From Actinomycetes bacterium (lineage in GTDB: Bacteria > Actinomycetota > Acidimicrobiia > Acidimicrobiales > JAJZXF01): 40,226 nt of DNA. Location: positions 1 through 40,226 of the forward strand of contig JAJYWA010000010.1 of assembly GCA_021791755.1 (NCBI GenBank), given 5' to 3'. Numbering within the stretch: the first letter of the stretch is position 1; each line of letters begins with the position of its first letter. The translations under genes were made by a program, and so were the position numbers. Shown here in pieces: positions 1-3,939 of this stretch. The notes under the pieces are model-generated. The model was not told where the DNA came from. It made no database searches and saw nothing but the letters and a program-made list of their open reading frames with translations.

Positions 1-342
1 ACGGTGGCGGTATTTCGGACACCACACGAGGTGCAGACCACACGAGGTGACACCTCCAGCGCTCCGGCGAAGTCGTGAAGATGACATGTTCCCACCATAC
101 GCCGAGGGTGTGACTTACATGATGGGAGGGTCCCCGGAGCAGGGCTGGGCCTGACCCCAAGCGTGTGACTGGCTTCGTGCCTTGCTGCTGATCTGTCGGC
201 CTGGTTCCTGCCCGTGGACACGCACCGACCGGTCGGACGGACGTGACCTGATAGGAGCCTTGAGCTGCACCGTGTAAGTCCTGTCCGCCGTCCCGGCCGG
301 TGGTGCGATCCCCCATCGGATGAGAGGAAGGCAGGTACCAGC
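1..342 (+). other. Non-coding left side of the IS110 element; candidate bridge-RNA region
   Basis: No convincing gene is seen in these 342 nt before the transposase ATG. The stretch has a 13-bp direct repeat ACCACACGAGGTG at 21-33 and 37-49, a dyad GAGGTG-A-CACCTC at 44-56, a repeated GTGTGACT at 108-115 and 163-170, and a perfect 12-bp palindrome CCGACCGGTCGG at 225-236. In IS110-group elements the region before the transposase gene is known to encode a structured bridge RNA that pairs with donor and target DNA. Position, length and self-complementarity fit that role, but I could not fold it or define its ends. The left boundary of the element is not resolved and may lie before the window. 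Confidence 0.45.
249..258 (+). repeat. 10-bp direct repeat TGATAGGAGC, left copy
   Basis: The same ten bases recur at 1597-1606, just after the transposase stop codon, so the two copies bracket the coding region. The left copy sits 84 nt before the ATG, inside the non-coding leader. It could be an element-end or guide-RNA related motif; this is inference. Confidence 0.4.
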
Positions 343-1593
343 ATGGCAAAGACGGACCGGGTTGTCATCGGCGGGGTGGACACCCACAAAGACGTCCACG
401 TCGCAGCGGTCGTCGACGAGGTCGGCAAGATCCTCGACACGAAGAGTTTCGAGACGACCGCAAAGGGCTATAGAGCGCTCGTCTCGTGGCTCAGCTCGTT
501 CGGCGAGCTCAGAAAGGTCGGTGTCGAAGGCACCGGCGCCTATGGCGCAGGTCTCGCCCGGCACCTCGCAGGCGCAGGGATCGAGGTCCTCGAGGTCAAC
601 CGGCCCAACCGCCAGGCACGCAGGCGCCGGGGCAAGTCCGACACCGTCGACGCCGAGGCGGCCGCCCGGGCGGCCTTGAACGGTGAGGCGCAGGTCGTGC
701 CCAAGTCCCAGACCTCGATGGTCGAGTCCATCCGAGCACTTCGCGTCGCGTTCAGGTCTGCGCGCCACAGTCGCACGCGGGTCGCCCTCCAGATCCGTGA
801 CCTGATCGTGACCGCTCCCGACCAGCTCCGGGTGGTCCTCGGGCCGCTCTCGACGCCCGAGCGTGTCGAACGCTGTAGCGGCTTTCGCGTGAGCGGTGAC
901 CTGGCTGACCCCGTTGTCGGCACCAAGCTGGCCCTGTGTACCTTGGCCCGCAGGTACGAGGCGCTGAGCACCGAGATGACCGAGCTCGAGGCGAGCCTCG
1001 ACACCCTCACTGCCCGGGCGAACCCCGCGCTCCGGGGCGCCAAGGGCGTCGGCCCCGACGTGGCCGCCATCTTGCTCACCGCAGCCGGTGACAACCCCGA
1101 GAGGCTGAAGAGCGAGGCCGCGTTCGCGGCCATGTGCGGGGTCTCGCCGATCGAGGCTTCCTCGGGCAAGACCGTCCGCCACCGCCTCAACCGTTCGGGG
1201 AACCGCCAGGCGAACCACGCCCTGTGGCGGATCGTGATGGTGCGGATCAGCCACGGTGACCCTCAGACGGCCGCCTACGTCGAGCGGCGCACCAAGGAGG
1301 GAAAGACCATGCGCGAGATCGTCCGGTGCCTGAAGCGCCACGTCGCCCGCGAGGTCTACCGCCATCTCGTGGATCCCGAGCAAGTGCCCGTTGGCGCAGA
1401 TCTGCGAGCGGCCCGCGTGGTTGCTCACATCAGCCTCCAGGTGGTCGCTGACGCCCTCGGGAGCTGGCCGACCCGCATCTCCGAGCTCGAGCGTGGTCTC
1501 AAGCACGACACGGAGCTCGCACAGCGATACGTGGCATGGCTCGATGAGCACGGCGAACAGGCCCCGAAGGCGAAACGCCTACTCGCCGCTTGA
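343..1593 (+). CDS. IS110-family transposase (DEDD recombinase) with C-terminal helix-turn-helix
   Basis: The 416-residue protein is a transposase of the IS110 family, which moves its element with a RuvC-like DEDD domain plus a C-terminal domain carrying a catalytic serine. The N-terminal acidic residues are visible: D13 in GVDTHKD, E62 in VEGTGAYG, and D100 and D103 in KSDTVDAE. The C-terminal part has the family hallmarks GVGPDVAAILL (236-246), CGVSPIEASSGK (265-276, with S273 or S274 as the likely nucleophile) and RLNRSGNRQAN (281-291). Residues about 354-403 (LRAARVV to RYVAWL) look like an extra Xre-type helix-turn-helix with the pattern ISELERG. The frame is full length and intact, so the element may be active. 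The start has GAGGAAGG a short distance upstream. A 478-residue open frame on the opposite strand is a coding shadow. Confidence 0.93.
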   Translation: MAKTDRVVIGGVDTHKDVHVAAVVDEVGKILDTKSFETTAKGYRALVSWLSSFGELRKVGVEGTGAYGAGLARHLAGAGIEVLEVNRPNRQARRRRGKSDTVDAEAAARAALNGEAQVVPKSQTSMVESIRALRVAFRSARHSRTRVALQIRDLIVTAPDQLRVVLGPLSTPERVERCSGFRVSGDLADPVVGTKLALCTLARRYEALSTEMTELEASLDTLTARANPALRGAKGVGPDVAAILLTAAGDNPERLKSEAAFAAMCGVSPIEASSGKTVRHRLNRSGNRQANHALWRIVMVRISHGDPQTAAYVERRTKEGKTMREIVRCLKRHVAREVYRHLVDPEQVPVGADLRAARVVAHISLQVVADALGSWPTRISELERGLKHDTELAQRYVAWLDEHGEQAPKAKRLLAA

Positions 1594-1596
1594 CAG

Positions 1597-1606
1597 TGAT
1601 AGGAGC
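1597..1606 (+). repeat. 10-bp direct repeat TGATAGGAGC, right copy
   Basis: Matches 249-258 exactly. It lies 3 nt after the transposase stop codon, where a short right end is expected in IS110-group elements. Confidence 0.4.
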
Positions 1607-1607
1607 A

Positions 1608-1663
1608 TCAGCCGTTGCGGACTTCGGAGCTGCGCTCCGAACCCCGATTCCCCTGACGGCTGA
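1608..1663 (+). terminator. Nested stem-loop after the IS110 transposase
   Basis: An outer 8-bp inverted repeat, TCAGCCGT (1608-1615) with ACGGCTGA (1656-1663), encloses a perfect inner hairpin, TTCGGAGC (1623-1630), loop TGC, GCTCCGAA (1634-1641). A further short CCCC-TC-GGGG hairpin follows near 1674-1683. There is no clear T-run, so it may be a terminator shielding the downstream operon or part of the element's right-end structure. Confidence 0.45.
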
Positions 1664-1754
1664 AGCCGCCAGTCCCCTCGGGGTGGTTTGATGGTGTGCC
1701 CATAGTGCTGCGGGAGGCGCCTGAGTGGACTGTAGCCAATGGACGGCGCGGTCG

Positions 1755-1954: not shown

Positions 1955-2674
1955 ATGAGCGAATGGAGGCGGGCTATGAGTCGTGGTTCTCGGGAAGTAA
2001 TTAGAGTACGTGAAAGTGAGAAGGCGAGGGAGCTTCCGAGGCGTCGGCGCGGCGCCGTGGGCGCAATGGTGCTCGCTGGCGGATTTGCCCTGTTGCTAGC
2101 GGCTTGCAGTAGCTCGACTCCGAGTTCCTCTAGTACGACCACGACAAGGCCGAAGACCACGGTCACGCAGTCGGTCGACATCTTGCGAGTAGGCCATACA
2201 AGCCTTGGCGATGTGCTCATTGACTCGCAGGGGCACACCCTTTACCTCCATCTCGGAGACTCGACGGGCCAAAGCGCCTGCACCGGGTCTTGTTCGAAGA
2301 GCTGGCTGCCATTGGAGTACTCGGGGAACCCAGCAACGATGCCGGTTGGTCCCGGAGTAGCGGTGTCGAAGATCGGCTCGCTTACTCGTGCGAGCGGCAA
2401 GCATCAGATCATGTACAACGGTCACCCGCTGTACTCCTACGTAGGCGACCACGCTGCGGGTCAGGTGAACGGCGAAGGACTTCGGACGGCGTTCTACGTA
2501 GCGTCGCCAACCGGCGGAGGCATCTGGCCGGGCGGAAAGCTTGCTTTCCCACCAGCTGGCGCGTCGTATGGCTGGCATCCGCCTGCCCAGTCATCTGCCC
2601 CGCCAACCGGCACCGCTTCCACCGGAGCGCCAGCCACACCATCCCACTCTGGTACCGCAAGTAGCAACGGTTGA
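1955..2674 (+). CDS. Lipoprotein with two Yx(F/W/Y)xxD secreted repeats (COG4315 / PF03640-like)
   Basis: A 239-residue predicted lipoprotein. A long basic N-region is followed by a hydrophobic stretch and the lipobox LAA-C with C51 as the lipidated residue. A Ser/Thr-rich linker (52-75) leads to the first repeat, where HTLYLHLGD and the CTGSCSKSWLPL block (109-120) match the family pattern LYxFxxD...CxGxCxxxWPP. The second repeat is YNGHPLYSYVGD (154-165). The tail is Pro/Ser/Thr-rich. The two Cys in CTGSC are conserved in the family, whose function is unknown; a role at the cell surface is inferred from the signal. AGAGGGAG at 1942-1949 supports the ATG at 1955 over the one at 1976. The stop overlaps the TTG of the next gene. 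Confidence 0.85.
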   Translation: MSEWRRAMSRGSREVIRVRESEKARELPRRRRGAVGAMVLAGGFALLLAACSSSTPSSSSTTTTRPKTTVTQSVDILRVGHTSLGDVLIDSQGHTLYLHLGDSTGQSACTGSCSKSWLPLEYSGNPATMPVGPGVAVSKIGSLTRASGKHQIMYNGHPLYSYVGDHAAGQVNGEGLRTAFYVASPTGGGIWPGGKLAFPPAGASYGWHPPAQSSAPPTGTASTGAPATPSHSGTASSNG

Positions 2675-3939
2675 CCAGGGAGTCTCGTACGGTACCGCAG
2701 AAGTCATCTCGTAGGAGATGCCACGCGTACCGGGCGGCTGGGCTCGGAGCTCTAACAGTGCTGCTGGCACTAGTTGCAAGTGCCTGTTCAAGCAGTTCGC
2801 AACCGTTGGTCAAGCCTCCGGGTGGGAACTTCTCAGTACTGACCCAAGCGAGCGGGTGGGGCCCTGTCATCGGTCATAGGACCGTGATCTGCGTTGTCAA
2901 CACGGGCTCCAACTCAGTGAGCTTGGTCACGCCCTCCGGGAAAGAGGTCAGTCCTCCAATCCCGGTTGGGAACTCCCCGTATGCAGTGGCGGTGAGTCCC
3001 AATGGAGAGTGGGCATATGTTGCCAACACAGGTTGGGGTGTGACCGCCGGCAGCACCATTACGCCCATCAACCTCGTAACGTTCCAAGTTGCGAGGTCCA
3101 TCAAGGTCGGCACGGGGCCGTTCGCGATCGCTGTGACGCCGGATGGGAAATCGGCGTATGTCGCAAACATGGGCGCCATGCTCACGACCAGCAGCCAGAC
3201 TGCTGGGGCTGCGCTCTACGCCGGCACCAAGGTGATCGACTCCCACACAGTCACCCCGATTGACCTGGTCACCGGTAAGCCAGGTGGAGCGATCAACTCC
3301 GGACCAGGACCCGGGGCGGTAGCAGTCACGCCCGATGGGCGCTGGGCCTATGTTGCGAACTCTGGAGCTCCGAACAACTACTCAGGGACGGTGTCAGGGA
3401 CGGTCACGCCGATCAACACAGCCACCAATTCGCCTGGCAGGCCTATACCGGTTGGACCGGGACCGATGGCCATAGCTATCACGCCGAATGGCCAGGAAGC
3501 CTACGTTGCGAACGCGGGCTGGTGGAACCACCCGGGGCGCACTGTGACGCCGATCAACCTTCTTACGAACAGGCCCGGTCCTGCCATCCCGGTAGGGGTC
3601 GGCCCGCTGGGCATCGCGATAACGCCGGACGGCCGGTGGGCCTATGTGGCAAACAGTGGCTGGGGACATGCCGACACCGTAACGCCGATCAACCTCGTGA
3701 CGAACACCCCCGGGCCTGCTATCCCTGCAGGCCCTGGCCCTGACTACATAGCGATCACACCCGACGGCCATTGGGCGTTCGTCGCCGATGGTGGAGATCT
3801 ATCTGGCCCGTCGGACTTGCTCACGCCGATCAACCTTCTTACGAACAGGCCGGCAAGGCCAATCAAGGTGGGGCTCGCCCCGGGTGCTCTGGCTGTAGCC
3901 GAAGTTCCTGTGTTTGCACACGAGCCCAAGGCCGGCTGA
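2671..3939 (+). CDS. Seven-repeat YVTN-type beta-propeller lipoprotein
   Basis: A 422-residue secreted protein with a basic N-terminus, a hydrophobic core and a likely lipobox ending at C39 (VASA-C; position -3 is Ala, slightly off consensus). The rest is seven repeats of about 40-60 residues, each built like AYVANSG ... VTPINLVTN ... IPVGPGP ... IAITPDG, starting near residues 70, 114, 161, 226, 276, 323 and 368. Seven such repeats are expected to close as one seven-bladed beta-propeller. The family includes surface and adhesion-type proteins and no catalytic residues can be named. The TTG start shares two bases with the stop of the preceding gene (TTGA), so the two are probably translationally coupled and made together. 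Confidence 0.85.
   Translation: MTRESRTVPQKSSRRRCHAYRAAGLGALTVLLALVASACSSSSQPLVKPPGGNFSVLTQASGWGPVIGHRTVICVVNTGSNSVSLVTPSGKEVSPPIPVGNSPYAVAVSPNGEWAYVANTGWGVTAGSTITPINLVTFQVARSIKVGTGPFAIAVTPDGKSAYVANMGAMLTTSSQTAGAALYAGTKVIDSHTVTPIDLVTGKPGGAINSGPGPGAVAVTPDGRWAYVANSGAPNNYSGTVSGTVTPINTATNSPGRPIPVGPGPMAIAITPNGQEAYVANAGWWNHPGRTVTPINLLTNRPGPAIPVGVGPLGIAITPDGRWAYVANSGWGHADTVTPINLVTNTPGPAIPAGPGPDYIAITPDGHWAFVADGGDLSGPSDLLTPINLLTNRPARPIKVGLAPGALAVAEVPVFAHEPKAG

What the first reader, a model, noticed from the sequence alone, without database searches (positions are those of the whole stretch)
1..1606. IS110 element with a candidate bridge RNA
Seen: an intact DEDD transposase preceded by 342 gene-free nt with a 12-bp palindrome (225-236) and several repeats. 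Known: IS110-group elements encode a bridge RNA in this position that pairs with donor and target DNA. Inference: this element may be an active, programmable recombinase from an actinomycete. The element's exact ends are unknown.
Basis: partly seen in the sequence, partly recalled or inferred. Interest (0 to 1): 0.6.

Follow-up and report, generated by a model that had tools for sequence, protein, structure and literature searches.

The report
IS110 element with matching bridge RNA
The start of this window holds a complete 1.5-kb jumping gene of the IS110 kind, inserted into another jumping gene, whose built-in guide RNA matches both its own ends and the site where it sits; it is ordinary in kind, but it and its relatives exchange DNA around one shared base instead of the two-base core known from the model element IS621.

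Summary
Window 115-1609 is a complete IS110-group element of about 1,495 bp, bounded exactly by two empty sites in the same genome (GTGTGAC^AGCCG and GTGTGAC^AACCG). It sits upstream of tnpA of an IS605-type element, so window 1-114 is target DNA and not part of the element. The leader, about 130-306, encodes a bridge RNA of IS621 architecture. A covariance model finds the RNA upstream of about 80 related transposases. In 64 RNAs, 28 of 41 pairs show two-sided changes, and 92% of cells pair against 32-44% in slid controls. Target, donor and handshake guides match each element's own flanks far beyond permutations in 50-63 elements. The RE-LE junction rebuilds a TTGACA-17-CATGAT promoter. Three things are unusual. 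(1) IS621 shares a CT core; here donor and target share only C8. Where guides predict different bases at position 9 (36 elements), the left end never carries the target base and the right end never the donor base, so exchange falls between positions 8 and 9. (2) The transposase carries a C-terminal XRE-type HTH tail. (3) Many relatives sit inside conserved motifs of other transposase genes. Expression, circle formation and activity were not tested.

The parts
1..114 (.). left half of the target: start of an IS200/IS605-type element (5' end of tnpA, minus strand, from about window 87 leftwards); not part of the IS110 element
   Evidence: contigs C23 and C155 of the same genome carry 1-114 joined directly to 1609-1699; Y1_Tnp there and in L006; tblastn of tnpA to window 87-1
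107..114 (+). left target GGTGTGAC (positions 1-8; C114 is the shared core base); on the minus strand the start of GTCACACC-N7-TATGGT
   Evidence: empty sites; pairs with LTG; promoter-like motif
115..1609 (+). complete IS110-group element, about 1,495 bp
   Evidence: boundaries from empty sites and from relatives
118..123 (+). CATGAT, candidate -10 box in the left end; pairs with the -35 box of the right end only in the circle (spacing 17)
130..306 (+). bridge RNA (predicted 5' end from the -10 box; modelled part 142-306)
   Evidence: CM R1 and searches; covariation
142..205 (+). target-binding loop with its stem; inner hairpin GGC-UUCGU-GCC at 171-181
162..169 (+). left target guide CGUGUGAC (7 of 8 identical to the left target; U170 after it is not a guide position)
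184..190 (+). right target guide GCUGCUG; its last four bases pair with CAGC (core C plus right target, 1609-1612)
191..192 (+). handshake guide AU, pairs with donor A1607-T1608
   Evidence: covaries with donor position 6: 58/63 against shuffled mean 41
249..258 (+). left donor guide UGAUAGGAGC, identical to the right end 1597-1606
271..278 (+). right donor guide CGUGUAAG, pairs with CTTACATG (core C plus left end 115-121; 7 Watson-Crick pairs and 1 G-U)
279..280 (+). handshake guide UC, pairs with target G112-A113
   Evidence: 50/55 against shuffled mean 30 at position 6
343..1593 (+). IS110-type DEDD/serine recombinase, 416 aa (D13, E62, D100, D103; S274)
1390..1551 (+). C-terminal XRE/Cro-type helix-turn-helix tail (residues about 350-403), absent from IS621
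1590..1595 (+). TTGACA, candidate -35 box in the right end, overlapping the transposase stop codon
   Evidence: TTGAC[A/G] in 49 of 50 relatives
1597..1609 (+). left donor TGATAGGAGCAT plus core C
1610..1694 (-). right half of the target: left end of the interrupted IS605-type element
   Evidence: homology with C23, C155 and L006 ends after GGTTTGATGG

Best explanation
It is a complete, probably functional insertion sequence of the IS110 group. Excised as a circle, it joins TTGACA of the right end to CATGAT of the left end and so makes a promoter that transcribes the bridge RNA and then the transposase. The RNA's first loop pairs with the target (left guide to the bottom strand over positions 1-8, right guide to the top strand over about 8-13). 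Its second loop pairs with the donor junction in the same way, and two 2-nt handshake guides pair with the partner's strand after exchange. The recombinase joins the target up to C8 to the donor from position 9, and the donor up to C8 to the target from position 9. Only C8 is shared, and position 9 is read separately for target (right target guide) and donor (right donor guide). This copy used GTGTGAC^A just upstream of tnpA of an IS605-type element. Shown by sequence: ends, structure, guides, crossover point, promoter elements. Inferred from IS621: pairing, catalysis, circle, activity.
For: Empty sites. RNA model hits directly upstream of transposases not used to build it, down to 3e-30. Structure covariation: 335 two-sided cells against 43-60 slid, covariation score 0.44 against 0.05. 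Right-target guide at position 9: 59/63 (shuffled mean 34, max 44); handshake guide at donor position 6: 58/63 (41, max 49). Left target guide 6.85/8 against 3.87 swapped (max 4.42); right donor guide at positions 9-12: 50-52/57 against 25-32. Crossover profile: position 7, 49/49 left=target and right=donor; position 9, left=donor 33/36 (target 0), right=target 34/36 (donor 0). Junction promoter. IS621/ISCro4 are the best solved relatives by sequence and by fold.
Against: No transcript, circle or transposition was observed. The own genome has only one intact copy, and the 99.9%-identical copy L006 lies in the same context, so it is not an independent insertion. The right target guide matches the window's target over only 4 contiguous bases. 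The IS621 structures place the top-strand cut after position 9, which does not fit the 8|9 junction without a changed register or biased repair.
Confidence: 0.93

Rival explanations
1. The chemistry is exactly that of IS621 (two-base core, top cut after position 9). The apparent one-base core arises because the mismatch at position 9 is always repaired in one direction, or because only copies repaired that way remain functional.
For: The recombinase is homologous to IS621. The donor keeps CT in many members and the handshake register matches IS621 (ATC before the core in both). Hiraizumi et al. state that mismatched nucleotides may be excised and repaired in cells (PMC11208158).
Against: Bias would have to be complete: 0 of 36 reversed at position 9, while positions 6-7 keep the opposite strand's information. 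The left target guide stops at position 8 and the base at 170 (U in 44 of 50) does not follow target position 9.
Confidence: 0.35
2. The leader is only a 5' UTR or attenuator regulating the transposase, and the matches to the flanks are repeats left by insertion.
For: A structured leader in front of a transposase can be regulatory; ISPpu9 has regulatory small RNAs (PMC8450116, abstract).
Against: Guides covary with flanks that are target DNA, shown by the empty sites, including on both sides and in handshake positions.
Confidence: 0.02
3. The copy is a dead relic that only looks intact.
For: Single intact copy in the genome; a second left end in contig C56 is truncated (L004).
Against: Full ORF, conserved DEDD and Ser residues, intact guides, intact -35 and -10 boxes.
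Confidence: 0.15

Closest known systems
IS621 (E. coli, IS110 group; PMC11208160, PMC11208158; PDB 8WT6-8WT9)
   Same: DEDD plus Ser recombinase; LE-encoded RNA with target loop then donor loop; left/right guides and 2-nt handshake guides in the same order; promoter rebuilt at the RE-LE junction; donor AT before the core
   Different: about 24% identity; core is one C instead of CT; left target guide covers 1-8 instead of 1-9; left donor guide ends at position 5 instead of 8; right donor guide contiguous; C-terminal HTH tail; target GTGTGAC^A
ISCro4 (PDB 9T56)
   Same: same recombinase fold
   Different: no HTH tail matched; its guides were not compared here
ISEc21 (IS110 group, seekRNA; PMC11187229)
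   Same: upstream non-coding region, RNA with bottom-strand match before top-strand match, no target duplication claimed
   Different: different target; not compared directly here
IS1111 group elements IS4321/IS5075 (title cited in PMC11187229)
   Same: RNA-guided elements that sit in other transposons (terminal repeats of Tn21 family)
   Different: RNA lies downstream of the gene and in reversed order; targets are transposon ends, not transposase coding motifs

Membership tests
[quoted passage not shown]
   5e-21, above cut-off; D13, E62, D100, D103 conserved
IS110 group | C-terminal Tnp domain with catalytic Ser (PF02371) | tested here: met
   5e-19; S273/S274 invariant
IS110 group | long non-coding left end, short right end (IS1111 has the reverse) | tested here: met
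   228 nt against 16 nt
IS110 group | LE-encoded RNA with conserved two-loop structure | tested here: met
IS110 group | loop guides complementary to target and donor | tested here: met
IS110 group | promoter rebuilt at RE-LE junction | tested here: met
   sequence only: TTGACA-17-CATGAT; similar in relatives
IS110 group | circular intermediate and RNA-bound recombinase | not testable with these tools
   needs reads or biochemistry
IS621-type subgroup with CT core | CT dinucleotide shared by donor and target | tested here: not met
   donor CT, target CA; only C shared. Control: IS621 copies show CT at both ends
IS1111 group | RNA downstream of the gene, long subterminal inverted repeats | tested here: not met
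   RNA upstream; right end only 16 nt

The most novel reading that the evidence does not exclude
This actinobacterial clade is a bridge-recombinase subclass with a one-base core: the top-strand exchange point is shifted to directly after C8, so position 9 is freely programmable on both donor and target. Within the clade, guides have repeatedly been tuned to conserved codons of other elements' transposase genes or, in the window's branch, to a promoter-type site (GTCACACC-N7-TANNNT).
Probability: 0.5. Interest if true: 0.65.

Novelty: new variant of a known kind. Interest (0 to 1): 0.48.

Why it matters
In the IS621 work the conserved CT core limits which sites can be programmed, and cores altered at the first base were generally less efficient (PMC11208160). 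A natural clade in which donor and target differ at the second core base would relax that limit and shows where strands are exchanged without needing a structure. It also gives about 50 natural donor/target/guide sets for a lineage that differs from IS621, and suggests that RNA-guided elements use other mobile elements as landing sites.

Tried and rejected
Rfam: no bridge-RNA family; only a spurious miRNA match at E 0.06. A one-position shift of the core relative to IS621 (our C8 = IS621 T9) was considered because the left target guide ends there; the IS621 control showed that the donor AT-C and the right-guide/handshake register align without a shift, so I keep C8 = C8. HTH tail as the reason for the GTGTGAC target: not supported, since L097 and L105 target GGTGTGAC without a tail and L114, L090 and L091-L094 have the tail with other targets. 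A literature search for a single-base core returned only the IS621 papers and one review, and searches for HTH tails or nesting in IS605 gave no paper that evidently reports them; those hits were judged by titles and abstracts only. The library holds open-licence papers only, so absence there is weak evidence.

Full report
What is there. The window is the start of contig C7 of a 2.67-Mb genome bin. Window 343-1593 encodes a 416-aa protein with both IS110 domains. Two other contigs of the same bin, C23 and C155, carry window 1-114 joined directly to 1609-1699 at 95-100% identity. These are natural empty sites and define the element as 115-1609 with one shared base, C (114 = 1609).

The host site. 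Window 1-114 and 1610-1694 together are the start of an IS200/IS605-type element: Y1_Tnp genes at both empty sites and, in the almost identical locus L006, a complete tnpA (Y1_Tnp 3.5e-28) and tnpB (OrfB_IS605, Cas12f1-like_TNB) to the left. The IS110 element lies between the IS605 left end and tnpA.

The RNA. Fifteen related leaders gave a consensus with two stem-loops. A covariance model found it directly upstream of about 80 related transposases, including loci not used for the model, for example L086 (3e-30), L087 (9e-27), L102 (4e-24); apart from 142-306 nothing in the 40-kb window matched. On 64 RNAs, 92.3% of cells are paired, 28 of 41 pairs have two-sided changes and the covariation score is 0.44; sliding the partner by 1-3 columns gives 32-44%, 10-13 pairs and 0.04-0.06. 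The single-sequence fold is only modestly stable for its composition (z -2.5), so the weight lies on covariation.

The guides. With the IS621 layout as template (PMC11208160, PMC11208158), guide segments were read from the model alignment and compared with each element's own ends. To avoid circularity the right ends were located with the left donor guide only, the left ends with the right donor guide only when testing the left target guide, and the reverse. Right ends (63 elements): right target guide positions 9-13 match 59, 55, 36, 44 and 37 of 63, none reached in 5,000 shuffles; handshake guide against donor position 6, 58/63 against 41. Left ends: left target guide 6.85 of 8 against 3.87 when swapped (max 4.42); second handshake guide 50/55 against 30; right donor guide positions 9-12, 50-52 of 57 against 25-32. 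Shuffles do not remove relatedness, but 32 distinct left target guides were among the 55. In the window: LTG CGUGUGAC against GGTGTGAC; RTG GCUG against CAGC; LDG UGAUAGGAGC identical to the right end; RDG CGUGUAAG against CTTACATG with one G-U; both handshakes paired.

The core. The empty sites read GTGTGA-CA-GCCG (C23) and GTGTGA-CA-ACCG (C155), while the left junction reads GTGTGA-CT-TACATG and the right junction GAGCAT-CA-GCCG. Hence donor CT and target CA share only C. In 50 elements with both ends, the guides predict different donor and target bases at position 9 in 36; 31 have left = donor and right = target at once, none is reversed. Position by position, the left junction follows the target up to position 8 and the donor from position 9, and the right junction does the opposite: position 7, 49/49 on both sides; position 8, 5/6 and 6/6; position 9, 33/36 and 34/36 with no case of the opposite; position 10, 42/46 and 41/46. 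As a control, three IS621 copies show CT at both ends (ATCAGGC-CT-TGTATTAT and ACAGTAT-CT-AC), as published. The IS621 structures place the top-strand cut after T9 and the bottom cut four positions to the left; the data here are simplest if the cut is directly after C8. That step is inference.

Transcription. TTGACA (1590-1595) overlaps the transposase stop codon and lies 17 nt from CATGAT (118-123) once the ends are joined; TTGAC[A/G] is present in 49 of 50 relatives and the best box score is 9 or more out of 12 in 37 of 50. This matches the promoter arrangement reported for IS621.

The protein. A profile of 45 relatives finds IS621 (3.6e-17) and ISCro4 (6.7e-16) as the only solved relatives. 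The AlphaFold2 model (pLDDT 88.5) matches IS621 best (Foldseek 3.8e-12). Residues about 350-403 form an extra helical domain predicted with good confidence. In this sequence Pfam sees it only weakly (E 0.007, below cut-off), but all 26 aligned tails match HTH_31 (best 7.8e-8) and their profile matches XRE regulators such as ClgR. The tail occurs mainly in one clade of Acidimicrobiia-type elements plus a small second clade. Close relatives are frequent in the same class (28 of 395 genomes, at E 1e-100) and nearly absent from a phylum-wide sample (only the own genome among 396, at the stricter E 1e-115). The tail's role is unknown; possibilities are target docking or repression of the junction promoter.

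Where relatives sit. Rejoining flanks showed that many relatives interrupt transposase genes of other elements, at conserved motifs: DDE_3/IS630 (L051 LVCD-N, L042 LVWDN), rve/IS3 (L038, L061), Transposase_mut/IS256 (L040, L047), ISL3 (L102, L104, L114), DDE_Tnp_4 or DDE_Tnp_1 (L030, L033, L036, L037, L041), and the end of a TnpB gene (L090). Others do not (a LysR gene in L027, a sigma factor gene in L098). The window's branch uses GGTGTGAC. On the other strand this reads GTCACACC, and 7 of 18 sites have TANNNT exactly 7 nt further (mean 0.07 at other spacings); the own genome has 7 such sites against 0 at another spacing, most of them IS605 copies. The distance from TGTC to TANNNT equals that of the mycobacterial DNA-damage promoter motif tTGTCRgtg-8-TannnT (PMC5656591); a functional link is speculation.

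Verdict. A new IS110 member with a well-supported bridge RNA. The family and the principle are known; the one-base core and the HTH tail make it a variant. Activity is likely but not shown.

Noticed in passing
L102, L104, L114, L030, L033, L036, L037, L041, L042, L051, L038, L061, L040, L047, L090: Relatives of the element interrupt transposase genes of at least six other families, at conserved motifs (confirmed by Pfam on rejoined flanks; L036 and L033's DDE match are only marginal).
   Followed up: partly
window 94-114 (minus strand) and 18 related sites: The target GGTGTGAC reads GTCACACC-N7-TANNNT on the other strand, upstream of gene starts; same TGTC-to-TANNNT distance as the mycobacterial DNA-damage promoter motif.
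   Followed up: partly
L004 (contig C56), 1022-1325: A truncated relative with a well-conserved bridge RNA (146 bits) but no transposase beyond the first codons and no right end found nearby; a possible trans-mobilised remnant.
   Followed up: partly
L097 and L105: These elements target GGTGTGAC but lack the HTH tail, so tail and target do not go together strictly.
   Followed up: partly
window 1955-2674 and 2671-3939: Lipoprotein with Lipoprotein_15 secreted repeats followed by a YVTN-like beta-propeller lipoprotein; ordinary neighbours.
   Followed up: no
L045, L061 compared with L063, L074 (Cryobacterium): Same guide set at GGGAT or GGGAC left targets while the right junction keeps C, so even the core base can be T on the target side.
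   Followed up: partly
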